Source: Cavenderia fasciculata
Taxonomy: Eukaryota; Evosea; Eumycetozoa; Acytosteliales; Cavenderiaceae
Assembly: GCF_000203815.1 (NCBI RefSeq)
Contig: NW_004457734.1
Span: 689,233 to 753,232, forward strand
Length of the DNA stretch: 64,000 nucleotides
Direction of reading: 5' to 3'
The position numbers and the translations under genes were made by a program. Shown in pieces: positions 3,081 through 60,223 of the stretch. The notes under the pieces were generated by a model, which was given only the letters and a program-made list of their open reading frames with translations, had not been told where the DNA came from and did no database searches. Within the stretch, counting starts at the first letter, position 1; each line of letters starts with the position of its first letter.

Positions 3081-4669
3081 ATTAAAATAGATTATAAATC
3101 AAAATACACATATCAAATAGCAATACACATTATATAATACTAAAAACAACAAAAATATCAATCAACCAATGACTTTTTATTTATTATTTATTGTGATGAT
3201 AAAGTTTAAATCAAGTATACTCTTGGCTATGACGATGTTGTTGATGATGATACATCCGAATTCCATCAACTCTACCCCCCAATTCAAATCAAACTACCCC
3301 CTCCTTCTCTCTTCTAAATATAGAAACAAAATATATGACAATGATGATATATCAATATCGTATGATATGGTCACCCTCTCTTTGTATATCTATGATCATG
3401 ATGAATGGTATGATAACATATGTTGTTTTGATACCAAATCATCTCATCCTATGTCATGGTAATACTAATCATTGATGATCATCATCATCCTATCCACTTT
3501 TTTTATTTCATTCCAATACGAAAGTTGGATAGAAGGATGGATGGAAGGATGGATGAATGGATGGATGAACTATTTATTATTATTTATTATTATTTTGATG
3601 TAGGTGTATATATTCATTGTATTATTATCAAGTTTGTTTGTTTGGTGGTGTAATATAATATAATATAATATAATAAATATTTATTTATTTAACTTTATTT
3701 TGGGCAAAAACGTAAGAATACAATCATTCATTAGATAGATAATTGGATCCAATTACAAGCATCAACGAGATGGTATCTACAGTAGGGATTGACTCCTTCG
3801 TCATCACACATTGGAATTCCTTTTTTGAACATCTCTACCCCCATCCACCAACACATTAATTACCCACACTTTCCTCATTTAGCGGTTGGCAAGTATTGTG
3901 ATTCAAAAGATCATCCGACCACAACGATTAGACTAGATCACACAATGTTAAAGATGTTAGATGAAAATGATGATGGATGATGGGGGTAGACATATCATGT
4001 TGAAGTATCACACAACGATTTACTAGTACCGAAATCTAATCAATGACTAACGAATCCAATCCAATCAAATCAAATCATATCAAATCAAATCAAATCAACC
4101 AATAATGAAATCAATAATTACTGTTCATGGATAGTAGTAATAGTAGTAGTAGGGTTAGGGTTGTTGTTGTTGTAATGTTAATTAATCTGTCTCCCTTTTA
4201 TTCCCCCTTTTTAAGAGGAGAGAGGGTGAACAGATTCAAATAGAATCTATCTGGTCTGTCTGTCTGTCTGTCTGTCGGTCGAGTCGAGTATATTTTAGGG
4301 GGTGGGAGTGGAAACAATAACTATTATTATTATTTTGTTTGCCCATCATCTTGTTGATCAACAATTTATTTTCATTAAAAATAAATCTTGGGAGGTTCTG
4401 GTTCTCCTTCAGGTTTCAGGTTCAAGTTAAAACATAGCAGTTGTCTATCTCTATTCCAATGTTAACTTTCTTTTAAATTCAAGTAACCTCTACTTTATCA
4501 TTACACTTTTTTAATTTATAATTACATCCATTCATATTCAATCATCATCTTTTAATATTTACAAATAATATTAATAATAGAATATTAATAATATTAATAT
4601 TACCCAAAAACTATTATTAATTTAAATTAATAACCTCTTCATAGTCATAGGAGTTTGTAGTAGTAGAAA
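3081..4669. other. intergenic, one doubtful small secreted-protein frame
   Basis: There is no recognised gene in this 1.6 kb. A frame at 3169-3462 (+, 97 residues) begins with a very hydrophobic stretch (ILLAMTMLLMM) that could be a signal peptide followed by TPQFKSNYP. It has no domain and no convincing splice partner, so I would not count it as a gene without RNA evidence. Short tandem runs are present: TATAA at about 3650-3675, CAAAT at about 4065-4095 and CTGT at about 4257-4275. The last part, just before 4670, should hold the P450 promoter. Confidence 0.5.
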
Positions 4670-18751: not shown

Positions 18752-20706
18752 ATGATAAAGGATATCATTGTATTTGTATTTGTAGTATTATTATTTATTG
18801 TTGTAGATTATACAACTTTAGCACTATCTAAATCTTCAACAACAACAACCATTGAATATTATTTTAAACAAGATGATATTAGTAGTGGAAGTAGTAGTAG
18901 TAGTAGTGGAGAGAGTTCAAAAGAATGGTATTCTCTAACTTCCCAATATCAAGTTGTAAAGGGTAAAAATGTTCAAGGTTCAATTGCTTGGGTATGTGCA
19001 CTATAATATTATAGCATAGGCATAGACAAGGGAATATTTATTAAAAATTACTTTCTTTTTTATTTAGGGATATTTTAAAGATGATATGTTAATTGATGGA
19101 TGGGGTAAATTATCAATTGAAACATCATCGATTTTAAATGATGATGTTGCATTCAAGGCAGCTGGTTATTTGGAAGGTTATCTGACATGGCCACACATTT
19201 ACAACTTTTCAGTCAATTTGTTCAACACCAACTTTAACACTACCAATCCAAAGGAATTCCCAATCGAGGTGATGAACTTTATCTCTCAAAACTACAACTA
19301 TATGACTCAACTAGTCAATAGCACAACTTCACAAAATGATCCATACTATCAACAAGTATCAAATGCAATCGATCAAATTCAAGGTCTTTATCAAGGTTAT
19401 AATGATGCTGCCGATTCTGATCATGTAAATATAAATATTAAAAGTAGAATATATTAATATTAAAATATTAATCAATTAAATTTGATTTAATATCAATTTA
19501 GCAATTAACATTTTGGGAAATGTATTTAATTTCATTGTATGTTGAAATTGGTGATATCATGTCTGCTGTAATGCCATCATCATCACATGAATTTAAACCA
19601 ATGTCTAGAGAAGAAGCAGAGACTGTTTTGGCAAAGACCGATCATTGCACTGGATTTATGAAACTGGCATCCAACGGTTCAGAACTTTACATCGGTCATA
19701 CTACATGGGCAGATTACACCTACATGATTAGAATTTATAAAAGATTAAAGATTCCAGTTGCTTCTACTCCAAATGGTTATGGTAAATTTAAATAGAATTA
19801 TATTATTTTGGAAAACAAATGTATATATTAATCTTTTTTTTGTTTTTACTTCTAGAAACATTAATGGCAAGTTATCCAGGATTATTAGTATCAACTGATG
19901 ATTTCTATATGATTAGACCATCAAAATTAATGGTAACGGAAACTTTAAATACATTGTTGAATCAAACATTGTATTCTTTGATTACTCCGGATTCGCTGAT
20001 GTATTGGGTACGTAATCTAGTGGCTAATAGATTGTCGAATAGTGGGTATGACTGGGTCACCTACTTTGTCAAACACAACTCGGGCACCAATAACAACCAG
20101 TACTCTATCGTCGACTACAAGTTATTCACTCCCTATGTCACTTTACCTGCCGATACATTGTGGGTCGTCGAACAGTACCCAGGCGGATACCAAGCTGCAG
20201 ACCTCACATTCAACCTTTTAGAGAATGGGTATTGGGCCAGTTACAATCGACCTTATTTCCAAGAGGTGTTTGATTTAATGGGATACCCATACTATGTAAA
20301 TCAATACGGCGACCTCTTTACCTACGAGTATAATCCACGTGCCAATATACTACGTCGTGACCAATCTAAAGTCGATTCTCTCGATGATATGATGAATGTC
20401 ATCTCTTATAATGAGTATCTGACCGACCCGTTGTCAACAGGGTCTGCTGGTGGTGCTATTGCCGCGAGATATGATCTCAAGGGTGGACCTGACCATCCAT
20501 ACTCTTGGTTCTACCACGGTACACACGGTGGTATCGACGGCAAGGTGATGAACAGTGCTATGTTTGACTCTTACACTGTGCTAGCTCGTAACGGTCCGAC
20601 TGTAACTGACGAATGTCCACCCTTCACATGGGCAGATTGGCAAGACAACTCTCATGCTGGTATGCCCGATGAATTTAATTTCCCTTGGATTTTGATTCAA
20701 ATTTAA
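18752..20706 (+). CDS. phospholipase B-like hydrolase (PLBD family), secreted/lysosomal
   Basis: Four exons, 18752-18991, 19068-19424, 19502-19781 and 19856-20706, give 575 residues with matching phases. The N-terminus is a signal peptide (IVFVFVVLLFIVVDY). The protein follows the PLBD/laminin-A family throughout: ...QLTFWEMYLISLYVEIGD..., TDHCTGFMKL, HTTWADYTYM, SSYPG-like and STDDF segments, RYDLKGG, and the closing PPFTWADW...HAGMPDEFNFPW. These are N-terminal-nucleophile hydrolases that self-cleave just before a Cys. Here that residue is Cys248 (mouse PLBD2 uses Cys249), so the fold and maturation site appear intact. Family members in Dictyostelium deacylate phospholipids and act in the endolysosomal or secreted compartment. 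It has the expected length, and no lesion was seen. Confidence 0.95.
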
Positions 20707-21161
20707 AAAATTAAATAAAAAGTTATTATTATTAATACTATACTCATCTCATCTCATCTCATCTTTTACAACTATAATTTTTGAGGTTTATTATTAAAAA
20801 TATTATTATTTTTTTTTTGTTTTTTTTTTAAAGAAAGTATTCATTTCCCAGGGCTGATTGTCTTTTTTAATTTACTCATTCCAAGGTATCAAAAAAATGA
20901 GAACTCTGCACTTCACTCCACCAAAATCAATCGAATCTTATTCTCTATTCTTTTTAGGTGTGGTTGATGCAAAGGGTGATCAACACCCTCTATTATTGAC
21001 AGTACAAGCCAGCCTCATTTTTATAGGTTTAGTGCACCTTAACAACAACAAATGATGATGATGATGTTTAAACAACAACAACAACAAGTTCGAATAGAAA
21101 ATAATCATAATCATAGTATTAGTAGGAGTAGTAGTAGTAGTACAGTTATACAAAGTTATAA

Positions 21162-21216: not shown

Positions 21217-22707
21217 ATGCCAACAATAGAATTAGAACAATTGGTAGTACCACCAGTACAGTATGATAAAATAGAGAAGATGGATTGTGACATGATCAAG
21301 TCAATCTCATTGCTCAATACAATGGGAATATCAATGACGGGGTTGGACCAAGTGTGTATTTATATGATCAAGACATTAAAGGATCAACAAAAAGGTGTGG
21401 CTGGTGCCAAGGGAGGCGTAGCAGCTATGGCAGGTGTTGGAGCTGGAATGGCTTTTTCTCCTCTATTTCTCATTGGATTTGGTCTGTTGATTTTCAGTGG
21501 TGTTGGAGGTGCTGTAACGTCGGCGGTCGATTTGGCTGTTGGTGAAAATAGAATGAAAACTGTAACCAGAAACGTAAAGAAATTGGAACAACTTCAAGCA
21601 CAAATTAACACAATCTTGTCGGAAATGTTCGATATGTTTCTTTTAATAGTTGATCCCAACCAACAACATGAACAAGAACAAGAACAAGAAGAAAGAGAGA
21701 GAAAAAGAAAAGAAAAAGAAGATTTGGCATACTACCTTACATTGGTTTATTTTGGTATGAAAGAAGGAACGGCCATTGAAGCATTTACAATGATTCAAAA
21801 TGAATTGTTATCCATCCCAATTGACAATCGTAATATTAACGGATTCGTTGACCACATTCTGGGTGGAAATCAAGGAACCTATGTTGGAAGGATCCAAAGG
21901 TCAATTGGTTTAATATTATTGGGTCGATCTACAAACAATCCCCAAGATGCAATCGAATCATTTAGAAATGCATCAGTCTCTGAAATCAAAGAAAATGCAT
22001 ATGCCCGTATCGCCTTCATTTCCACCATTGGTATTATTGCTCCAACTGCCAGTGCTGCCATTCGAGCATGTGCAGTGGGAGCTGGAGCCGGAGCTGGAAT
22101 CATGGTTGCCAAAGCAACTGGAAAGTTGGCAGTAGCAGTCCTTGGCAAAGTATGTATCATTGCATCACCAGTCATCAGTCTCGCAGATTGTATCATTGAA
22201 GCAGTAGGAGACAGTGGTTTTATAAAAGCAATCAAGAAAATCCAAAGTTGGGGTGAACAAGTTATGAAATTCTATTCTTCCTACTTGCGAATTATCCCAG
22301 AAAACCAGGATATTCAAAAGATACCAAGGGTAATAGAAATGATTGATGATTTGAAACTAGATGGATGCCCTCCAGCTTTTGTTGGAATGTTTGGACTGGC
22401 CTCTAAAGGATACAAATCGTTGGATCTTGGAACGACAACATATTATTTTCAACCACGTGAGAATATATGCATTACAACATCATTTGGAACTGTAATTCCA
22501 GAAACCTTGAGAATGGATTTAGGTGTAACCCATCTAAATCCAACCACCAAACCCAATCATCTAATTGTTTCATGTGAATCTTTAAAAGGTGTTTTTATTT
22601 CATTCAATGTTCGTCAATGGAAAGGTAATAAGACTATTGCTTTTCAAATTCTATTGCATCCAATCAACCAAAATCTTTCAACTTCATATCGTTATGAAAA
22701 TAATTAA
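21217..22707 (+). CDS. apolipoprotein-L-like membrane protein, copy 1
   Basis: A single exon of 496 residues. The order is: a short helical N-terminus (KIEKMDCDMIKSISLLN); a Gly/Ala-rich hydrophobic hairpin near residues 65-110 (KGGVAAMAGVGAGM, SPLFLIGFGLLIFSGVGGAV, then VDLAVG); a long amphipathic coiled coil with an EQEQEERERKRKEKE charged run; a second hydrophobic hairpin near 275-330 (GAGAGAGIMVAKATGKLAV, IIASPVISLADCIIEAVG); and a beta-rich C-terminal domain (TTTYYFQPRENICITTSFG, VFISFNVRQWKGN). This helical layout with two Gly-rich hairpins resembles the apolipoprotein L membrane-inserting region. That is my inference from pattern, not a proven homology. No signal peptide is visible, so the protein would meet membranes from the cytosol. 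Copies at 22994 and 23571 follow in the same direction. The function is unknown; membrane insertion or remodelling is the simplest guess. Confidence 0.75.
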   Translation: MPTIELEQLVVPPVQYDKIEKMDCDMIKSISLLNTMGISMTGLDQVCIYMIKTLKDQQKGVAGAKGGVAAMAGVGAGMAFSPLFLIGFGLLIFSGVGGAVTSAVDLAVGENRMKTVTRNVKKLEQLQAQINTILSEMFDMFLLIVDPNQQHEQEQEQEERERKRKEKEDLAYYLTLVYFGMKEGTAIEAFTMIQNELLSIPIDNRNINGFVDHILGGNQGTYVGRIQRSIGLILLGRSTNNPQDAIESFRNASVSEIKENAYARIAFISTIGIIAPTASAAIRACAVGAGAGAGIMVAKATGKLAVAVLGKVCIIASPVISLADCIIEAVGDSGFIKAIKKIQSWGEQVMKFYSSYLRIIPENQDIQKIPRVIEMIDDLKLDGCPPAFVGMFGLASKGYKSLDLGTTTYYFQPRENICITTSFGTVIPETLRMDLGVTHLNPTTKPNHLIVSCESLKGVFISFNVRQWKGNKTIAFQILLHPINQNLSTSYRYENN

Positions 22708-22993
22708 ATAAATAAATAACCAACCAATTATTTAAAGGTGAAAAAGATGTGAAATAAATGTATAAGCCAAGGGGCCAAGAATCACTATAGTATGTATGTG
22801 TGTGTGTGTGTATGTTGATGCAAAGGAGACCATCAACCCTTTCTATTATTGGACAGAGATAGAAACTCATATTTTTAAGTACAAGACGATAATAAATACA
22901 CCACAACAACTACTTCTTCTGAGGATGATCATCATTCTTTAATCAAAATTAAGTAGTAGTAGTAGAAGTTAAAATATTTGTATTTATTTAAAT

Positions 22994-23257
22994 ATGTCAG
23001 CAATAGAATCAGAAATAACAACACCAGTACAAACTCTTGATGCAATAGAAAATCAGATGGGCTATACCAATAACATGGAGACACCACTAAAAGATCAACA
23101 AAAAGGTATTGCTGTTGCAAAGGGAGGCTTAGCAGCTGTAGCAGTTGCTGGTGCTGTATTGTCTGCTTCCCCTTTATTTCCGTTTGGATATAGTCTGTTG
23201 CTTCTAAGTGGTGTTGGAGGTGTTGTAATGTCGGTGGTCGATTTCATCAATAAATAA
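22994..23257 (+). CDS. short ApoL-like paralog (hairpin only), copy 2
   Basis: An 87-residue single exon. It repeats the N-terminal helix and the first Gly-rich hairpin of its neighbours (KDQQKGIAVAKGGLAAVAV, SPLFPFGYSLLLLSGVGGV, SVVDFINK) and stops straight after it. The coiled coil, second hairpin and beta-rich domain are missing, and the DNA to 23570 does not restore them in any frame that I could see. The first residues differ from both neighbours (MSAIESEITTPVQTL), while the hairpin is closer to copy 3. It may be a partial duplicate with no role, or a stand-alone mini membrane protein. It keeps its ATG, an intact frame and a spacer of similar size to those of the full copies. Confidence 0.5.
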   Translation: MSAIESEITTPVQTLDAIENQMGYTNNMETPLKDQQKGIAVAKGGLAAVAVAGAVLSASPLFPFGYSLLLLSGVGGVVMSVVDFINK

Positions 23258-23570
23258 ATATAATATTCATTGTATAGGACTCAGTGGTGGATCATTGATT
23301 TTACTTGTTAAATGGGCCAATCAAAATAGATAAATTAAAGTAAATAAATAAATATAGCTAGCTGTGGATGGGAAAACTCTTCCTTAATCTAATTTATAAA
23401 AGAAAGTAGACTTTTTGCAATGGTTGTGTCTGTGTGCGTGTGGGTGGTTGATGATCAAAGTAATATTATTTTGCTGGTTAACACAAAAAAAATGTGTACA
23501 TACTTTTTAAAAGTCATTTCATAAAAGTAGAATTATTTATATGTGTATATAAATTTGTATTTCAAAAAAA
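23258..23570. other. spacer between ApoL-like copies
   Basis: AT-rich spacer with AAATA repeats and no further homology to the full-length ApoL-like genes that I could detect. It should contain the copy 3 promoter. Confidence 0.5.
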
Positions 23571-24980
23571 ATGGTTCCAGCAATAGAATTAGAACAAAGA
23601 TATGATGAGATTGAGAAGATGGATCGTGACAAGATCAAGTTATTCTCATTGCTCAATTCAGTTGGTCATTTGAAGTCAGATTTGATTAGAATGTGTCAAG
23701 AGATGGTAGAGACACTTAAAGATCAACAAAAAGGGGTCGCTGTTGCAAAGGGAGGCGTAGCAGCTATGGCAGGTGTTGGAGCTGGAATGTCTGCTTCCCC
23801 TTTATTTCCGCTTGGGTATGGTCTGTTGATTCTTAGTGGTGTTGGAGGTGCTGTAACGTCGGTGGTCGATTTGGCTGTAGGTCATACCAGAGTTTCAAAG
23901 GTGAACAAGGAAACAGAGAAATTGATCAAAGTTCAAGAATCAATCAACACAATCTTGTTGGACATGGTCAATATGTTTCTTTTACAAGTTTGTCACGAAG
24001 GTCCTAGTGATAAGGAAAGAGCCGAGCTGTCATACTATCTTGTCATGGTTTACCTTGCCATGAATCAAGGTGCAGCCACTCAAGTATTCAAAATGATTCA
24101 AAATGAAGTGTCATTCATCCCCATCGACGATCGAAATATTAATGGATTCATTAACCATATTTACACTGCAAATGACCAAACCTATGTTGGTATGATTCAA
24201 AGTGCCATCGGTGCCATCTTGACAGGATCAAATAATAATGCAGATGCCATCAAATCGTTTAGAAACGCATCGGTCGATCAAATCAAGGAGAATGCCTATA
24301 TCAGGATATCGATCATTGTGGCCATTGGTAGTATCGTTGTTCCAACTGCCAGTACTGCCATCAGAGTCGGTGTAGGAGCCGGTATTATGGCAGTCAATGC
24401 CGCCAAAGCTAGTGGAAAGATGGCTCTATCGGTGGTTGGAAAAGTATGTGTCATTGCATCACCAGTCATTAGTTTGGTCGATTTTATAGTATCAATATCA
24501 GGAGACAGTAGTTTTGTAAAAGCAATCAAAAAAGTAGATGATTGGTGTAACCAAATTTTAGAATTCTATTCTGCTCTACTATTCATTACTCCATCCAATA
24601 TCCACTGTATTCCAAGAGTACTAAAAGTAATCGATAATCAAATCCAACTACTTGATCATCCAGTTTCAATTGGAATGTTTAGTATGACCTCTAAGGGATA
24701 CCAATTGTTAAATCTTGGCACAACAACATATTATTATCACCCCCGTGAAAAAGTATGCATTACAACTGGTTTCGGAACTGTCACTTCTATTCAACTAAAT
24801 ACTGCAGATGCAATCCACGAAAATCCAACCTCCAACCCCAATCATATTATTGTATCATGTAATTCCTCAAATAGAGATATATTTATTTCATTAAATGTTT
24901 ATCAATGGAAAGGTAATTGTAATCTTGTTTTTACCATTAAATTGGTTCCTTTCAACATGGTATCAAATCAAAATTTTTAA
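23571..24980 (+). CDS. apolipoprotein-L-like membrane protein, copy 3
   Basis: A single exon of 469 residues, collinear with copy 1 over its whole length. It has the N-terminal helix (YDEIEKMDRDKIKLFSLLN), the first hairpin (KGGVAAMAGVGAGMSASPLF, GLLILSGVGGAV), the central helical region, the second hairpin (IVVPTASTAIRVGVGAGIM, VIASPVISLVDFIVSISG) and the beta-rich tail (GTTTYYYHPREKVCITTGFG, IFISLNVYQWKGN). It lacks the Glu/Arg-rich insertion of copy 1, which accounts for most of the length difference. Strong conservation of the hairpins and tail, with divergence between them, suggests selection on both membrane and C-terminal parts. The family resemblance to ApoL is inferred from layout, as for copy 1. 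No signal peptide was seen. Confidence 0.75.
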   Translation: MVPAIELEQRYDEIEKMDRDKIKLFSLLNSVGHLKSDLIRMCQEMVETLKDQQKGVAVAKGGVAAMAGVGAGMSASPLFPLGYGLLILSGVGGAVTSVVDLAVGHTRVSKVNKETEKLIKVQESINTILLDMVNMFLLQVCHEGPSDKERAELSYYLVMVYLAMNQGAATQVFKMIQNEVSFIPIDDRNINGFINHIYTANDQTYVGMIQSAIGAILTGSNNNADAIKSFRNASVDQIKENAYIRISIIVAIGSIVVPTASTAIRVGVGAGIMAVNAAKASGKMALSVVGKVCVIASPVISLVDFIVSISGDSSFVKAIKKVDDWCNQILEFYSALLFITPSNIHCIPRVLKVIDNQIQLLDHPVSIGMFSMTSKGYQLLNLGTTTYYYHPREKVCITTGFGTVTSIQLNTADAIHENPTSNPNHIIVSCNSSNRDIFISLNVYQWKGNCNLVFTIKLVPFNMVSNQNF

Positions 24981-25094: not shown

Positions 25095-27125
25095 ATGAAT
25101 GCTCCAGATACCACTTTAACAGTTGTACAACCAACATTTAAAAGTTTGATTAGAGTACCATATATCAAAAGAATAATATTCAATCAAATAACCGAGATAT
25201 CAATACAAGAGTTTAGATCACAAAGAGGAACCCAAAACAATGATGATGATGATCACGACGGGTTTGTTCGAGCAAAGAAAGGAAAGGATATTGTCAAGTT
25301 ACCTCATCTTGCAATGATCAGTATTTATGGTATGCCATGGAACTTTATCAAACATTATCTACCAACATGGTGTGCAACAATTGACAACAAAGAGACTGTA
25401 TTAAAGAAAAGAAGAATATATGTAATCACTCGATATTGTTCACATCCCAATGCAACATTGGATACACTACAACATCTATTCGAATGGTCACCAGATTATG
25501 ATCCTCATCTTCTATCAAAGATACATTTTAAAGAATTATCAAGAAATGTTGCCAAGGTAGGAAATAGAGATGTATTAGAACTACTTGTTAACAAGTATCC
25601 ACTTATCAATCTAAAAGGTGTTGTTGAAGTTGCTTCTAGATATGGACATCTTTCAACATTACAATTATTAAACACCGATCAATATCGTAGAGCTAGTTGT
25701 GACGAGACTACAATGGATATTGTTGCAAAGAATGGTCGTTTAAATATTTTAATGTATTTGCATTTTAATAGAACTGAAGGTTGTTCATACATTGCGATGG
25801 ATTTGGCATCTGAATTTGGTCATTTAGATATTGTCAAGGTATAGTACCATAGAGACTGTGATTAAAGGCTTTACAACCTTTATCAATTACTTTTATTAAT
25901 TATTTTATAGTTTCTCCATTTTAATAGAACAGAAGGATGTTCGATACATGCTATGGATAATGCAGCACGTAATGGTCATTATGAAGTTGTAAAGTGGCTA
26001 CATGTCAATAGAAGTGAAGGATGTACGACTCGAGCATTGGACTATTCGGCATCATTGGAAATCACTCAATTCCTTCTTACCAATCGCACTGAAGGGTGTA
26101 CAATAGAGGCATTCGACAATGCAACATCAAGAGGACGGTTAGATATAATTGAATATCTCCATCAAAATACAAGTAAAGAGTGTACATCTACAATGAGTTT
26201 GGCAATTATCAATGGTCACATTGATATTATAAAGGTATATAAAAGAAAGATAGTTATAAGTTATATCATTGCTATATTTAACCATCAGTCATATCTTTCT
26301 ATTTATTGATAGTTTTTGTATCAAATTAGAACCGAGGGATTCTCAGACTCTTTAACTATTGATAGAGTTAAAATGAATGGTAAATGTGATACAATTGGTA
26401 TTATAATATTCCTTCTCTCTCAGAGCAGTAGAGTAGAGTTTTCAAATTTGTTTTTACAAAGAGCAATTCAATCAGGTCGATTGGATATTATACAATTTAT
26501 TCATCAACATTATCCAACATCTGAAAAATGGTCTCAACTAAAATCACTAGACTTGGCTTGCTATTACAATCATTTTGAAATGGTTAAAGTAAATATAATT
26601 TAATTTTAAACAAATAATAATATTTATTATTTATTAATTATTTATTTAATTTAGTGGATACATTTTAATCGTGTAGAGGATCGGTGTTCAACTGACTCAA
26701 TGGATTCAGCTGCCATGAATAATAATATGGAAATGCTTCAATTCCTTCATCTTAATAGAACAGAAGGATGCACAACCGATGCTATGGATCTAGCTTCAAT
26801 GAAAGGTCATTTGAAAATAATAGAGTTTTTAAATGACCAACGAAAAGGGTGCACAGTAAGAGCAATTGATGAAGCTGCTTCAAATGGTTTCTTGGATGTG
26901 GTAAAGTATCTCCACAAGAATCAGACTGGCGCTCAGCAATGTACGTCTTCTGCTTTTAAAATACCAATTTTGTATCCCCACTACGATGTGATTGATTATA
27001 TTCTTGACAACAAATTAATTTCAATATCAGAAATTAAAAATACTATCAAAAGATATGCTGGTCAGGAGACATATTGGGAAACTGTTGATTTGGTTAGTAG
27101 ATATTATAATAATAATAATAATTAA
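25095..27125 (+). CDS. ankyrin-like repeat protein ('NRTEGC' type), copy A
   Basis: Four exons, 25095-25838, 25911-26234, 26313-26588 and 26655-27125, all joined in phase 0, give 604 residues. The N-terminal part (residues 1-150: [45 protein letters not shown]) is a dictyostelid-specific cap. It is followed by about 14 ankyrin-like units of roughly 27-34 residues with the cycle AxxxGHxxIVKxLHxNRTEGCTxxAMDxA. The introns fall at the same point of the repeat (after VK, before FLH), so exons are whole-repeat modules. Such repeats are protein-binding solenoids; no partner or enzyme domain is visible. It faces a paralog on the opposite strand at 27226-29495, only 100 bases away tail to tail. Confidence 0.88.
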
Positions 27126-27225
27126 TGTAAATATAGAAATCATATATTCCAAAACGGTTATTATTAAAATTAAATAAAAAATATTATTTTATATTCCTTG
27201 TTACTTACTAATTTGAATTTATTTA

Positions 27226-29495
27226 TTATATTATATTTCGATCAAACCAATCCATGGCTTCAAAATAACCTTTTTTCAAGTGTTTTAAAATTTCTTTAGA
27301 TATATTTTCTTTGCAAAAGAGTAGAGGATATTTAGGCAAAAGATAATCCAAAACTTGGCAATAAACGGGTAAATAGGTATTTGGTTTAAGAACATCCAAA
27401 GAACATCCTTCTGTACGATTATTATAAAGAAATTCTACTATTTGAAGACCACCATTTTGTGCTGCGTATCCCATTGCACTTGTCGTGCATCCTTCTGTCC
27501 TATTATAATGTAAAAACTATAAATATATATTTATATAATGTTAATAAACATAATTATGAAAAGTGATAATAAATTTCAAAATAATTTACCTCTACTATTT
27601 CTCGATGACCATACTTTGCAGCCATATCCATAGCTCTATAGGTCGCACCTTCTGTTCTATGCTGATTGAGATAGGTTATAATATCAAGGTGTCCATATTG
27701 TCCTGCAAAATCCATTGTAGTGATACTCCATATTTTAGAGGAGGTCTTGAAATGCTTATCAAGATATTGAATAATATCCAATCTACCCAACTTTGCGGCA
27801 TTGTTGACTGCAAGTGAGGTACAAGATGATTTGAGTTGTGTATGAACATATTCTATCATCTCTAATTCCCCATTATTCGATACTATCCTGTTGATTAGAT
27901 TACTTGGGTATTTTTTCTTTACTATCCTATTCTCGTGTAAAAACTGTAGAAATAAATAAATATTAATATTCTCTAAAAAGGAGTCAGTGTTGATAATTAT
28001 TTAATACCTTTAAAATATCTAAATTATTATTATCGATTGCATATTCAATTGCATCCAAAGTACATCCTTCGGTTCTATTTTTATAAAGGAATGATACCAT
28101 TTGTAAATCCAACATAGATGCATGATCCATTGCATTCTTTGTGCATCCTTCAGTTCGATTTAAATGAAGAAACTCGAGTATCTTTAAATTAAAAGAATGA
28201 TCCATAGCATCCACAGTACATCCCTCACTTCTATTGACATGGAGCCACTCTAAAATTTCAAAATGACCATTACGTGCTGCATTATCCATAGCATGTGTTG
28301 AACATCCTTCTGTTCTATTAAGATGGAGAAACTATAAATATAAAAATAAATATAATTAATAAAAATAATTGTCAAGGTATGGTACCATAGAGACTGTGAT
28401 TGAGGTTGTAATCACAGTCCGGACATACTTTGACAATCTCAAAGTGTCCAAATTCAGATGCCCAATCCATAGCATTCTTTGTGCATCCTTCAGATCTATT
28501 ATCATGAAGAAACTATAAATAAAATATAATTATAAATTAATACACAATAGTCAAAAGAAAATGAAGAAGTATTAATTATTGTTACCTTTAATATTTCAAA
28601 ATAACCATTACTAGCAACTTGATTCATAGTGATCTCCAAACATCCTTCAGCCTTATTATCATGAAGAAACTATAAATGTATCCAGTTAATATTTAATTTA
28701 GAGTATTCTTCTGTAGTTATTATAACATACTTTAACAACATCAAAATGACCAAAAGTTGCAGCATTATGCATAGCTCTGCTGGTACAATGCTCATCTTGA
28801 CTATGCAAATACTCCAATACATTTAAATGACCATATTCCGCGACGGTTTGCATTATTTCCTTATAGTATCTTGGTTGATCCTCCTCCCTTGGAAGGGAAT
28901 CTATAAACTGTAGAGTCGAGAGATGTCCATTTATAGCTGCGATATCTGCCATATCACGTGGATCACCCAATGACAGATGAGTTGGATAATATTGAGTGAT
29001 AAGAAACTCTAAAATATCTCGATGACCATACTCTGCAATATCTACCAATAGATCCAAGTAACAGTGACTATGTTGCAAAGGTGTAAAATCTTGTGACCAT
29101 TCTATTAGATGTTTTAAAGTATCCAAAGTAGCATTTGGATGAATACAATATATTGATATGACAATATCTCTTCTTCTTTTTAACAGTACTTGTTGTGAAT
29201 TGATATAATGTTTAATAAAGTTCCATGGCATTGCATATTGTGTAATCATTCCTAAAAGAGCCAAACCAATAATATCTCTTCCTTTTTTAAAACTTTGTTT
29301 GTTATTTTCATCACCTCCTTCTCCTCCTCCTCCTCCTCCTCCATTTAAATGATTAAATATCAATCCTCTAATATATGATATTCTAAATATACTTTGAAAT
29401 GTAATAGTAGTAGTAGTATTAACATTATTATTATTATTATCTGTATCTTTCATATGCAAATTTAAAGAATGAAAAATCGATGACATGTTCTTCAT
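27226..29495 (-). CDS. ankyrin-like repeat protein ('NRTEGC' type), copy B
   Basis: Six exons on the minus strand: 29495-28731, 28669-28586, 28512-28429, 28331-28008, 27943-27590 and 27516-27226. All are joined in phase 0 and total 633 residues. The N-terminal cap matches copy A ([45 protein letters not shown]) but carries Asn and Gly runs. Exons 2 and 3 are each exactly 28 codons, one repeat unit apiece, and are absent from copy A. Exon 4 is 324 bases, the same as copy A exon 2. This supports growth by exon-unit duplication. The third intron holds a foldback (listed separately). It is predicted to be a cytosolic protein-binding solenoid of unknown role. Confidence 0.88.
28368..28437. repeat. 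foldback inside intron 3 of ankyrin copy B
   Basis: The outer arms 28368-28381 and 28424-28437 are inverted copies with one mismatch; each spells the exon end plus donor (ATTGTCAA[A/G]GTATG). The inner arms 28392-28401 and 28410-28419 (GACTGTGATT / AATCACAGTC) form a perfect 10-bp stem. The plus-strand reading also matches the first intron of copy A (about 25830-25862). This points to sequence copied between the two opposed genes. Confidence 0.8.
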
Positions 29496-40488: not shown

Positions 40489-40533
40489 GTCAAATTTTGA
40501 TATTATATTTTGGATTCAATACACATATTAGTT

Positions 40534-40605
40534 TCCCTTTTGGTCTAGTGGTGAGGATTTTCGCCTGTCACGCGAAAGGCCCGAGTTCAATTCTCGGAAG
40601 GGGAG
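40534..40605 (+). tRNA. tRNA-Asp (anticodon GTC)
   Basis: A 72-base cloverleaf. The acceptor stem TCCCTTT pairs with AAGGGGA (one G:T), with discriminator G. The D-arm contains the A-box TGGTCTAGTGG. The anticodon arm is TTCGC-CTGTCAC-GCGAA with GTC at the centre. The T-arm CCGAG-TTCAATT-CTCGG contains the B-box. No intron, and the CCA is not encoded. A T-run follows as the pol III stop. All stems pair, so it looks functional. Confidence 0.97.
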
Positions 40606-40609
40606 AACC

Positions 40610-57004: not shown

Positions 57005-60000
57005 TTAACTAATATCAATTGTAACATAAACTAAAGCATTACCTTCTCTTGGTTCATTCATTGAACGAAGAGTTGACCATTGATTATGTTGGATATTATA
57101 ACGATAGGCATCAGACAATACCTCTGAAAAGTAACCACCGACTACATATACGTTGTCCTCATTGTCATAGACGACCGAGTTTCTAACGTCGATTGGCTTG
57201 ATCATATCGGCCATGGTGTCGCATCTAGGTGGGTCAGTGAGAACTTGATAGCGGTCCAAGCAAGAAGAGATGCGTTTGGTGCCATAGCTACCACCCATGA
57301 GATAGATAGAGTCGGAGCGAGTGTCATAGATGGCGCCAGGACCATCACGCATCTTTCGCATGCGCAATAGACGGACCCATTTGTCTTCGGCAATGTCATA
57401 GCGTTCGATAATGTCGAGGGCCTTTCCGTTGAAGCCTCCGATAGCGTAGATGTAGTTCTTGCCGTCATAGACAGCCGACAAATCAGATCGTTGTGTCTTC
57501 ATGGGTGCCAAAGACTGGTACTCTTGCGTAAAGAGGTCGAAACGGTCGACATGGTTGGTGAACCAACGGTCCTTGCCACCAATAATGTAGACATAGCGTT
57601 TGCCGTCGTAGATCGTGGCGTGACGTGATCGTTCGCTTGGGAGGGGTGCTACATTCTCCCAAGTGTCGTTGTAGATGTTGTAGCGCTCGACCGTGGTGAA
57701 CGAGATGTTGCCAGACTCGCCACCAAACACGTAAATGTGGCCGCGTCCATCATAAATGCCACTGATACGATTGCGTTCGTTGGTCATTGGTGCCACATAA
57801 CTCCATCGGTTCTGGTTGATCGAGTATCTTTCAACCGATTGTTTTCCTTTACCACCAATTGCATAAATGAATTTTAATGTACATTTAAAAGGTAAATTTG
57901 ATACTTTAAGTAAATTGATTTGATAATTATCATTAATTGATTTAATAAAATTATTATTATTATTATTATTTGTTTGTTGTTTGCTATCTACATTGTTGTT
58001 GTTATTTACTATGTTGTTATTTTTTGGAAGAGAGACTAATTGATTTCTAAATTTAAATTGCCATTGAATATCATTATTTTCAGTTGATGATACTTCAGAG
58101 ATGGCTTTGAATAGATCGTTAAAATGAGCCTTTTGTTGATTTGATTCGTGAATGGATTTGGGAGATGAGGAGTGTCCAAAGAATCTACTTCTTTCAGCCT
58201 CAATGTCTGACAATAACTTGTTGATTCGTTCACGTTTGTGTTCCATTCTAGAGCGATGGTTGACAAAATCACTGTCAACTTGGTTAAATAGATCCGAAAG
58301 GATACGTTCAAACTCTTTACGCAGTTGTTCCTTACAATCCTCGACAGGATTGTATTTGAGAATACTCTCGACAATGTCACTTTCCACTTCGAGATAGTTT
58401 TTGTATCGAAGGAAAATGTCTCGCATGTTTTGATTCTCTACATTGTTTTGTGCAACAATCTCACCATACGATTGGATACGATGTTTGTTGTGATGGTGAT
58501 GCAAGCAAAGCTCACACAATGACATTTGACATTGATCATCAAAACAATAGTATTGATATTCTTGTCCATGTACAATACATCTAGTATCTGCTGGTTTCAA
58601 CGCAATTGCTGGTGTCAAATATGGAAGCTTCAAATTATTTGATTGATGATGATGTTGTGTTGGAGTTTGAGTAGATGAAGATGAATGATGTTGAGAATGA
58701 TGATGAGAATTTGGTGTTAATGAATGTTGTTGTTGGTGTTGATTCATTACAGATATATGTGGTGAAAGTGGTTGTTGTTGTTGATGATGATGTGGAGAAA
58801 GTGGTGGATGTTGTTGTTGTTGTTGTTGTTGTACCTGTTGTTGATGATGTTGTTTATATTGATATTGTTGATGATCTTGTAAATACATTTGAAACTGTTG
58901 ATATTGTTGTTGGAATTGTTGTTGTTGAATCGATTGGGATAGATAGACAGGGGTGGATGCAGACAACGGAGAGGAGGACAGATTGGAGGGATTGGAAGAG
59001 GAAGAGTTGAGGGGGTTGTTGGAAGAGTTGCTGTACAAGTAGGATGGATAGGATTGGTTGAGTTCAGACAACAACGAGTTGCTGTTGGACATGCCCGTAG
59101 AGGCGTTTCGGCTGAACCCTCCGCCACCCTCGCTGCTCGTAATCGACGAGCCGTGTGACCCACCCAATGGATTGTTTGACTTTTCCAACAAAGAGGACGA
59201 CAGAGAAAGAGGATTCAAAAAGTTTGAAGATGGGGACTGTGGAGGGGGTTGATGATACATATTGGGAAGTAGATTGGACGTTGAGATGGATGGTAAGGGT
59301 GGAACCAATGTTCCATTACCACCAATCATTTTGTTGTTGTTATTTCTATTGGCGTTTGCGTTGATCGTATTATTATTATTATTATTATTATTGTTTCCGT
59401 TGCGTGGTGATGATAATATATTGGCGTTTGCGTTGTTATGATTATTATTATTATTATTGTATTGATTATGAATCGCAGAAGAGGGAGGGAATGAAGAGGT
59501 GGAAGTGAGAAGAGGGGACGAGGAGGGAGGGATTTCCGTAGATTTAAAGAGTGGCGACTTTGGCGACAAGGGCGTAGGTGAAAGATAAGAGGACAGCGCA
59601 GGTGTGCTGGTGCTCGATGATAACACGTTGAATTCCTTGACTGGAGAAAACAACAATGGTGAAGTAGACAATGGTGGCGAATAAGATGGCGTCGATGAAC
59701 TAATTCCCGTAGAAGAGTTGATACTATTACCATTACTATTACCTTGTTGTTGTTGTTGATTAAATAATTTATAATAATTTCCTCCCATAGAAGAAGATGG
59801 ACCAGAAAAAGAAGAAGAACTTGAATTGGAGATAGCAATGGCAATGGAACTGCTACTGTTGAGTGGTGGAGGGGAAGGAGAGGATGAGGAGCCGAGTGAC
59901 TTGTTGGACGAGTAGTCGGCAAGCGCACGGTACAAAGAGTCGTCGACACGAACGTCGCGAGCAGGTGTTTTCAAACGACACTGCACACAATAGTAGGTGA

Positions 60001-60223
60001 TAGAGTCGCCTGGAATCGAATTCTTGTCGACAAGACTAAGATCCAAACAATCGGAACAATAGCTATGATCGCATTTCAGTGTCTTTGGTTTGGACAATAT
60101 AGATTGACATACTTGACAAATCATACTTTTATCTCCATAACCCGATGGTGACGACGACGAAGATGATGATGACGGTTGATGTAATTGTTGATGATGTAAA
60201 TTATTATTATTGTCTTCTTTCAT
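57005..60223 (-). CDS. RING/B-box/coiled-coil/kelch protein (TRIM-like)
   Basis: A single exon of 1072 residues. The RING is near 36-80 (CQVCQSILSKPKTLKCDHSY, then CSDC and YCVQC), making it a likely E3 ubiquitin ligase. A very long Ser/Asn/Gln/Pro linker follows. The B-box lies near 547-590 (CIVHGQEYQYYCFDDQCQ, LCELC, HHHNKH). A coiled coil lies at about 600-720 (EVESDIVESILKYN, RMEHKRERINKLLSDIEAER). Six kelch repeats run from about 785 to 1068, each with a GG pair and Tyr/Trp positions (IYVFGGESG, YVYIIGGKDR, YIYAIGGFNG, SIYLMGGSYG, VYVVGGYF). RING, B-box and coiled coil in this order is the TRIM tripartite module; the propeller would select the target. Exon GC in the kelch part is higher than in its surroundings. 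All RING ligand positions appear filled. Confidence 0.92.
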   Translation of the reverse strand: MKEDNNNNLHHQQLHQPSSSSSSSSPSGYGDKSMICQVCQSILSKPKTLKCDHSYCSDCLDLSLVDKNSIPGDSITYYCVQCRLKTPARDVRVDDSLYRALADYSSNKSLGSSSSPSPPPLNSSSSIAIAISNSSSSSFSGPSSSMGGNYYKLFNQQQQQGNSNGNSINSSTGISSSTPSYSPPLSTSPLLFSPVKEFNVLSSSTSTPALSSYLSPTPLSPKSPLFKSTEIPPSSSPLLTSTSSFPPSSAIHNQYNNNNNNHNNANANILSSPRNGNNNNNNNNNTINANANRNNNNKMIGGNGTLVPPLPSISTSNLLPNMYHQPPPQSPSSNFLNPLSLSSSLLEKSNNPLGGSHGSSITSSEGGGGFSRNASTGMSNSNSLLSELNQSYPSYLYSNSSNNPLNSSSSNPSNLSSSPLSASTPVYLSQSIQQQQFQQQYQQFQMYLQDHQQYQYKQHHQQQVQQQQQQQHPPLSPHHHQQQQPLSPHISVMNQHQQQHSLTPNSHHHSQHHSSSSTQTPTQHHHQSNNLKLPYLTPAIALKPADTRCIVHGQEYQYYCFDDQCQMSLCELCLHHHHNKHRIQSYGEIVAQNNVENQNMRDIFLRYKNYLEVESDIVESILKYNPVEDCKEQLRKEFERILSDLFNQVDSDFVNHRSRMEHKRERINKLLSDIEAERSRFFGHSSSPKSIHESNQQKAHFNDLFKAISEVSSTENNDIQWQFKFRNQLVSLPKNNNIVNNNNNVDSKQQTNNNNNNNFIKSINDNYQINLLKVSNLPFKCTLKFIYAIGGKGKQSVERYSINQNRWSYVAPMTNERNRISGIYDGRGHIYVFGGESGNISFTTVERYNIYNDTWENVAPLPSERSRHATIYDGKRYVYIIGGKDRWFTNHVDRFDLFTQEYQSLAPMKTQRSDLSAVYDGKNYIYAIGGFNGKALDIIERYDIAEDKWVRLLRMRKMRDGPGAIYDTRSDSIYLMGGSYGTKRISSCLDRYQVLTDPPRCDTMADMIKPIDVRNSVVYDNEDNVYVVGGYFSEVLSDAYRYNIQHNQWSTLRSMNEPREGNALVYVTIDIS

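What the first reader, a model, noticed from the sequence alone, without database searches (positions are those of the whole stretch)
21217..24980. Tandem cluster of apolipoprotein-L-like membrane proteins in an amoeba
Three same-strand genes encode proteins with two Gly/Ala-rich hydrophobic hairpins separated by amphipathic helices, plus a beta-rich C-terminal domain with a conserved TTTYY...ITT.FG block and .QWKGN motif. The layout resembles the membrane-inserting part of ApoL proteins, which act in vertebrates in innate defence and membrane remodelling. The C-terminal domain is not one I know from ApoL. No signal peptide is visible, so the action would be on internal membranes, for example phagosomes in a bacteria-eating cell. 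This is the best candidate in the window for an undescribed system.
Basis: partly seen in the sequence, partly recalled or inferred. Interest (0 to 1): 0.75.

Follow-up and report, generated by a model that had tools for sequence, protein, structure and literature searches.

The report
Amoeba-specific orphan membrane-protein gene pair
A slime-mould genome carries two intact sister genes and one shortened copy for proteins with a very oily, glycine-rich hairpin that probably enters membranes; they match no protein family we could test, so the suggested kinship to animal ApoL proteins is not supported.

Summary
The window comes from a dictyostelid-like genome (31.0 Mb). Two uninterrupted same-strand genes are real: 21217-22707 (496 aa) and 23571-24980 (469 aa), 59% identical. 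The middle "gene" (22994-23257, 87 aa) is a truncated copy with only the first hydrophobic hairpin. Whole-genome searches gave no convincing fourth copy. Pfam, NCBIfam, PHROGs, PADLOC, PDB sequences, and viral, phage and sampled prokaryotic DNA gave no credible relative. ApoL (PF05461) never appeared and the APOL leucine zipper is absent, but no positive control or profile-profile test was possible. Both AlphaFold runs failed (pLDDT 33, 36), so no fold search was made.

Hairpin 1 is the best-supported feature: 39 residues without D, E, K, R, N, Q or H in all three copies (shuffles p about 0.0002), 86% identical between the full genes. The second hydrophobic region is weaker. The C-terminal part is beta-leaning and fast-evolving (dN/dS 0.72). 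The fragment changed 13 of 53 residues without gaining a polar residue or stop (simulated p 0.006-0.017), a hint that it may still encode a hairpin peptide. Most likely: a lineage-specific, cytosolic, membrane-inserting protein pair; a defence role is speculation.

The parts
21217..22707 (+). gene A, 496 aa, uninterrupted ORF (P0001)
   Evidence: 59% identical to gene C; overall dN/dS 0.48
21412..21528 (+). gene A hairpin 1 (residues 66-104), 39 aa without D/E/K/R/N/Q/H
   Evidence: shuffle p 0.0002; 86% identity and dN/dS 0.30 for residues 49-104 of gene C numbering
22003..22212 (+). gene A hydrophobic region II (about residues 263-332), interrupted by charges
   Evidence: 65% identity, dN/dS 0.35; boundaries are mine
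22363..22704 (+). gene A beta-leaning C-terminal part with GTTTYY, ITTSFGT and QWKGN
   Evidence: 52% identity, dN/dS 0.72; fold not established
22994..23257 (+). fragment B, 87-aa ORF: short, diverged N-terminus plus hairpin 1 only (P0003)
   Evidence: 14 substitutions on its branch (17 with 3 ambiguous sites), 13 aa changes in 53 codons, no new polar residue or stop
23123..23239 (+). fragment B hairpin 1 (residues 44-82)
   Evidence: shuffle p 0.00015
23571..24980 (+). gene C, 469 aa, uninterrupted ORF (P0002)
23751..23867 (+). gene C hairpin 1 (residues 61-99)
   Evidence: shuffle p 0.0002
24300..24506 (+). gene C hydrophobic region II (residues 244-312)
24507..24590 (+). gene C amphipathic helix candidate (residues 313-340), with the highest hydrophobic moment in the protein
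24657..24977 (+). gene C beta-leaning C-terminal part (residues 363-469)
   Evidence: model pLDDT 36
20963..20984 (.). GTTGAT...ATCAAC inverted repeat upstream of gene A
   Evidence: 3 such sites in the window (the third at 3240), 0.25 expected; lies in a 43-nt stretch 79% like that before fragment B
22814..22837 (.). GTTGAT...ATCAAC inverted repeat upstream of fragment B
23448..23458 (.). shorter TTGATGATCAA repeat upstream of gene C
   Evidence: 17 such sites in the window, 10.4 expected, 6 of 100 shuffles reach 17, so weak

Best explanation
A lineage-specific (orphan) family of cytosolic membrane-inserting proteins, made by local duplication. SHOWN: two intact paralogs and one truncated copy, purifying selection on the pair, a strongly conserved Gly-rich hydrophobic hairpin near the N-terminus, a fast-evolving C-terminal part. 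INFERRED: the protein stays soluble as a helical bundle that buries the hairpin; on a trigger (lipid, pH, or a ligand bound by the C-terminal domain) hairpin 1, helped by hydrophobic region II and the following amphipathic helix, inserts into an internal membrane to remodel or permeabilise it. The 87-aa copy would, if expressed, be a hairpin-only peptide that could cap or co-insert with the full proteins. The target membrane and purpose are unknown; endosome, phagosome or mitochondrion are all possible.
For: Intact ORFs with dN/dS 0.48 overall and 0.30, 0.26 and 0.35 in hairpin 1, the helical middle and region II. 39-residue polar-free stretch in all three copies, p 0.00015-0.0002 against shuffles. 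Proline/glycine-bearing centre (SPLF..G) in that stretch, fit for a turn (sequence). The segment after region II has the top hydrophobic moment in both proteins. The C-terminal part has dN/dS 0.72, as one expects of a recognition part, or of relaxed constraint. The fragment's 13 changes keep the hairpin free of polar residues, simulated p 0.006-0.017.
Against: Kyte-Doolittle peaks do not exceed shuffled sequences, and with only D/E/K/R excluded the 39-residue stretch is less rare (p 0.016, 0.058, 0.012), so a buried hydrophobic core of a soluble protein is not excluded. Region II is broken by charged residues. No structure, no homolog in a second species, no expression or localisation data. 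The polar-gain test was devised after seeing the data.
Confidence: 0.42

Rival explanations
1. True but highly divergent ApoL family members (PF05461) in an amoeba, with the leucine-zipper end replaced by a beta domain.
For: Order of elements resembles the published APOL layout: two transmembrane segments forming a membrane-insertion domain, a later pore-lining segment (PMC8358165 passages; PMC10937811 passages). PF05461 has been reported outside animals, in the algal virus TsV-N1 (PMC4517135, one table passage).
Against: No ApoL match at E<=10 for whole proteins or six fragments; none in the own genome; no leucine zipper. No positive control rang in 14 control genomes, and HMMER filters can hide weak hits, so this is not a strong exclusion.
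Confidence: 0.07
2. Helical pore-forming-toxin-like proteins (soluble alpha pore formers with a hydrophobic hairpin) used against bacteria or competitors.
For: Helix-hairpin-helix order with an oily hairpin and a variable end domain.
Against: No pore-forming-toxin family among the Pfam or NCBIfam lists, no visible secretion signal, no structure.
Confidence: 0.12
3. A resident two-to-four-span membrane protein of an organelle with a housekeeping role, duplicated by chance; the middle copy is a decaying pseudogene.
For: Orphan genes are common in this group: 3,358 of 12,165 C. fasciculata genes are lineage-specific by PMC8535579 (passages). Fragment dN/dS against gene C is 0.75 (0.126/0.169), near neutral, and its branch is long (14 against 3 changes).
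Against: The fragment's changes avoid polar residues and stops more than simulated neutral change does.
Confidence: 0.28
4. Soluble protein whose Gly/Ala-rich stretch is a buried core, not a membrane hairpin.
For: Hydropathy maxima are not above shuffled sequences; region II carries several lysines.
Against: 39 residues without any D/E/K/R/N/Q/H in three copies, p 0.00015-0.0002.
Confidence: 0.11

Closest known systems
Apolipoprotein L family (PF05461; human APOL1-6)
   Same: Hydrophobic two-segment hairpin, a later hydrophobic segment, most members without signal peptide (PMC8358165 passages); clustered paralogous genes (recalled for APOL)
   Different: No Pfam match; hairpin 1 starts near residue 61-66; C-terminal leucine zipper missing and a beta-leaning part in its place; hairpin 1 has no acidic residue, unlike the APOL1 membrane-insertion domain (PMC8358165)
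EcsC family (PF12787)
   Same: Weak 47-residue resemblance at and before the Gly-rich stretch of gene C (E 0.069, 13.3 bits)
   Different: Far below the 30.4-bit cut-off, seen in one of six fragments; the only own-genome match (E 0.62) lies elsewhere and is also below cut-off
Dictyostelid lineage-specific genes in general (PMC8535579, passages)
   Same: Paralogs without detectable relatives
   Different: Nothing tested sets this pair apart except the conserved hairpin; other dictyostelid genomes could not be searched, so the true range is unknown

Membership tests
ApoL (PF05461) | Match to the Pfam profile | tested here: not met
   hmmscan at E<=10, 3 whole proteins and 6 fragments: absent; own genome six-frame: 0. 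Caveat: HMMER filters; 0 of 14 control genomes ring
ApoL (PF05461) | Membrane-insertion hairpin of two transmembrane segments | tested here: inconclusive
   39-aa polar-free stretch but hydropathy not above shuffles
ApoL (PF05461) | Later pore-lining transmembrane segment | tested here: inconclusive
   region II present but interrupted by charges
ApoL (PF05461) | C-terminal leucine zipper conserved in APOL1-6 (PMC8358165 passages) | tested here: not met
   no L-x6-L-x6-L-x6-L in either protein (looser heptads of any hydrophobic residue occur); C-terminus beta-leaning
ApoL (PF05461) | pH- or voltage-dependent ion conductance or membrane fusion | not testable with these tools
   needs protein
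EcsC (PF12787) | Pfam match above 30.4 bits | tested here: not met
   13.3 bits in one of six fragments
Known anti-phage, phage or NCBIfam families | Profile match above the curated cut-off where the library has one, otherwise a significant E-value | tested here: not met
   PHROGs best E 0.0084, NCBIfam best E 0.0067 at 16.6 against a 211-bit cut-off, PADLOC none at E<=10

The most novel reading that the evidence does not exclude
A dictyostelid-specific defence or membrane-remodelling device that reached an APOL-like hairpin architecture independently: two full-length effectors with a fast-changing recognition domain, plus a hairpin-only micro-protein from the same cluster that tunes or blocks their insertion.
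Probability: 0.1. Interest if true: 0.7.

Novelty: new member of a known kind. Interest (0 to 1): 0.3.

Why it matters
If the proteins insert into membranes on cue, they would be a membrane-acting effector family unknown to the profile libraries searched, in an amoeba of the kind used as a model phagocyte, and a test of whether APOL-like architectures arise repeatedly. As it stands it is a well-formed orphan gene pair: on average 24% of dictyostelid genes are lineage-specific (PMC8535579 passages), so orphanhood alone is ordinary.

Tried and rejected
ApoL kinship: PF05461 sought in the proteins, own genome, 6 prokaryotic genomes (0 of 6) and 368 genomes of one bacterial phylum (1 of 368 at E<=0.001, 19.3 bits in a 1305-aa frame, 0 of 368 over the cut-off). 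I wanted true ApoL sequences for a profile-profile test and did not obtain any.

Further family members: the whole-genome protein search gave only the three copies with gene C, its C-terminal part (two copies) and its N-terminal part, and with gene A one extra match at E 0.046, which proved to be a lysine/glutamate-rich stretch at the end of a gene that I recognise from recall as eIF4E-like. The QWKGN DNA pattern gave three sites; the third lies beside an ORF that I recognise (recall) as an aldehyde dehydrogenase, with no ORF of this family around it. The GTTTYY pattern with one mismatch gave 44 places, fewer than the reversed control (91), so it is uninformative; one exact place besides the two genes (L038) was covered by the profile search and not otherwise read. 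hmmsearch without filters over the window, 200 kb of flanks and 13 other loci gave nothing beyond the three copies and the lysine-rich artefact, the next matches being at E 0.17 or worse (I left out 14 loci that only repeat the window's own genes). This covers about 1% of the genome.

Prokaryotic relatives: 4 of 395 and 5 of 368 genomes matched gene C's protein at a per-genome E<=0.01; about 7.6 of 763 are expected by chance. The matches are short and scattered over the protein; the best profile score among them is 15.1 bits, a Gly/Ala-rich 82-aa frame in L135. L131 aligns at 34% over 76 residues to gene C (blastp E 8e-6 against the frames of ten selected loci only); as it was picked from 763 genomes and gene A gave no blastp match there, I treat it as chance, but it was not followed further. 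Scans of viral contigs and genome contigs used two short peptide patterns each and are weak negatives; phages gave one match at E 1.

Structure: two AlphaFold jobs (whole protein; 45/52 C-terminal part) gave pLDDT 33 and 36, so no fold search was run.

PDB sequences: best E 0.67, none, 1.1.
Full report
WHAT IS THERE. The window lies at C4:689233-753232 of a 30,995,898-base genome held in 21 contigs. Its other genes (FNIP repeats, ankyrin arrays, poly-Asn/Gln tracts, Phospholipase B-like) fit a dictyostelid (recalled trait); the species was not established. Two uninterrupted ORFs, gene A (21217-22707, 496 aa) and gene C (23571-24980, 469 aa), lie on the + strand. They are 59% identical. Between them lies an 87-aa ORF, fragment B (22994-23257). 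It matches gene C over 160 nt at 88% and gene A at 81%, covering hairpin 1; its N-terminal part is about 17 residues shorter than gene C's and aligns poorly apart from the first residues. Downstream of it, before gene C, only an AT-rich stretch of about 40 nt resembles gene C's 3' end (80%, E 8e-4).

HOW STRONG IS THE HAIRPIN. A 39-residue stretch without D, E, K, R, N, Q or H occurs in all three copies; shuffles of the same residues reach that length in 0.015-0.02% of 20,000 trials. With only D/E/K/R excluded the test is weaker (p 0.016, 0.058, 0.012). Sliding-window hydropathy maxima are within what shuffles give. The second hydrophobic region (residues 244-312 of gene C) is broken by charges and has polar-free runs of at most 18-19 residues. 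A strongly amphipathic segment follows it. I take hairpin 1 as well supported and region II as plausible.

EVOLUTION. NG86 dN/dS between A and C is 0.48 overall; by region: N-helix 0.45, hairpin 1 0.30 (86% identity), helix after hairpin 1 1.36, helical middle 0.26, region II 0.35, amphipathic 0.48, C-terminal part 0.72; for the two short linkers (11 and 22 codons) no dS could be computed. dS around hairpin 1 (0.29) is less than half of the overall 0.64, which may mean gene conversion there. Fragment B against gene C over 53 codons gives dN 0.126, dS 0.169, near neutral, and its branch carries 14 changes against 3 on gene C's, with 3 ambiguous. Yet its 13 amino-acid changes introduce no polar residue and no stop; neutral simulations with 17 substitutions reach that in 0.6-1.7% of runs over six mutation settings, while the number of amino-acid changes is not lower than neutral. 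This was a post-hoc test on one short sequence and is a hint only.

COPY NUMBER. Protein searches of the whole genome found these three places and no convincing fourth; a first-look filter limits sensitivity, and introns are not modelled. The QWKGN pattern occurs in the two genes and at one unrelated place. An unfiltered profile search of the window, 200 kb of flanks and 13 other loci added only a lysine-rich artefact.

KNOWN FAMILIES. Pfam lists nothing above its cut-offs for three proteins or six fragments; the best are N1221 (E 0.0026, 17.4 bits against 27) over a charged stretch, DNA_gyraseB (E 0.038) and, among weaker ones, EcsC (E 0.069). NCBIfam, PHROGs and PADLOC give nothing credible, nor do PDB sequences. 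ApoL is not in any of these lists. ApoL could not be given a fair profile-profile test since no ApoL sequence was obtained, and none of 14 control genomes rings. In the passages of PMC8358165 that I saw the APOLs are described by a membrane-insertion domain of two transmembrane segments, a pore-lining segment and a conserved C-terminal leucine zipper; the zipper is absent here. Passages of PMC10937811 describe the transmembrane hairpin and roles in fission and fusion. A search for apolipoprotein L with Dictyostelium returned one unrelated paper (listing), and apolipoprotein L with amoeba and domain returned six, none on an amoeba ApoL by title (listing). So the resemblance is of layout only.

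STRUCTURE. Their helices followed by strands agree with a modest composition difference, but I did not search folds with such models.

REGULATION. Gene A and fragment B share a GTTGAT...ATCAAC inverted repeat (20963-20984, 22814-22837) within a 43-nt stretch 79% alike; such sites number 3 in the window (the third at 3240) against 0.25 expected. Gene C has a shorter TTGATGATCAA (23448-23458), of a kind only mildly enriched (17 against 10.4). This may be inheritance by duplication, or shared control.

VERDICT. A real, intact pair of orphan genes under purifying selection and a truncated sister, with one striking conserved membrane-type hairpin. Membrane insertion is the likeliest activity; ApoL membership fails the tests that could be run; defence or phagosome function is not evidenced. 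Lineage-specific genes make up 3,358 of 12,165 genes in C. fasciculata (PMC8535579 passages), so the case is interesting but not surprising. I call it a new member of a known kind, the kind being lineage-specific duplicated genes for putative membrane proteins, not ApoL.

Noticed in passing
18752-20706: Phospholipase B-like gene directly upstream (PF04916 profile 214-486 in ORF 19819-20703, E 5e-107); the N-terminal part may lie in separate ORFs at 18752-19795 (not scanned), by introns or damage.
   Followed up: partly
25095-29495: Ankyrin-type ORFs with NRTEGC repeats on facing strands (+ strand 25095-27125, - strand 27226-29495); only 25095-25841 was scanned (Ank_4).
   Followed up: no
21353-21651 and 23692-23990: Hairpin-1 stretch has dS 0.29 against 0.64 overall, suggesting gene conversion between copies.
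   Followed up: partly
20963-20984, 22814-22837, 23448-23458: Inverted repeats of the TTGAT..ATCAA kind upstream of the copies, a possible shared transcription-factor site.
   Followed up: partly
57005-60223 (- strand): RING, B-box and Kelch repeats in one 1072-aa ORF.
   Followed up: no
40533-40606: tRNA-Asp (GTC) gene.
   Followed up: no
L131, ORF frame from 1378, + strand: A 435-aa frame in an unnamed bacterial genome aligns 34% over 76 residues with gene C (residues 339-413); probably chance after a search of 763 genomes.
   Followed up: partly
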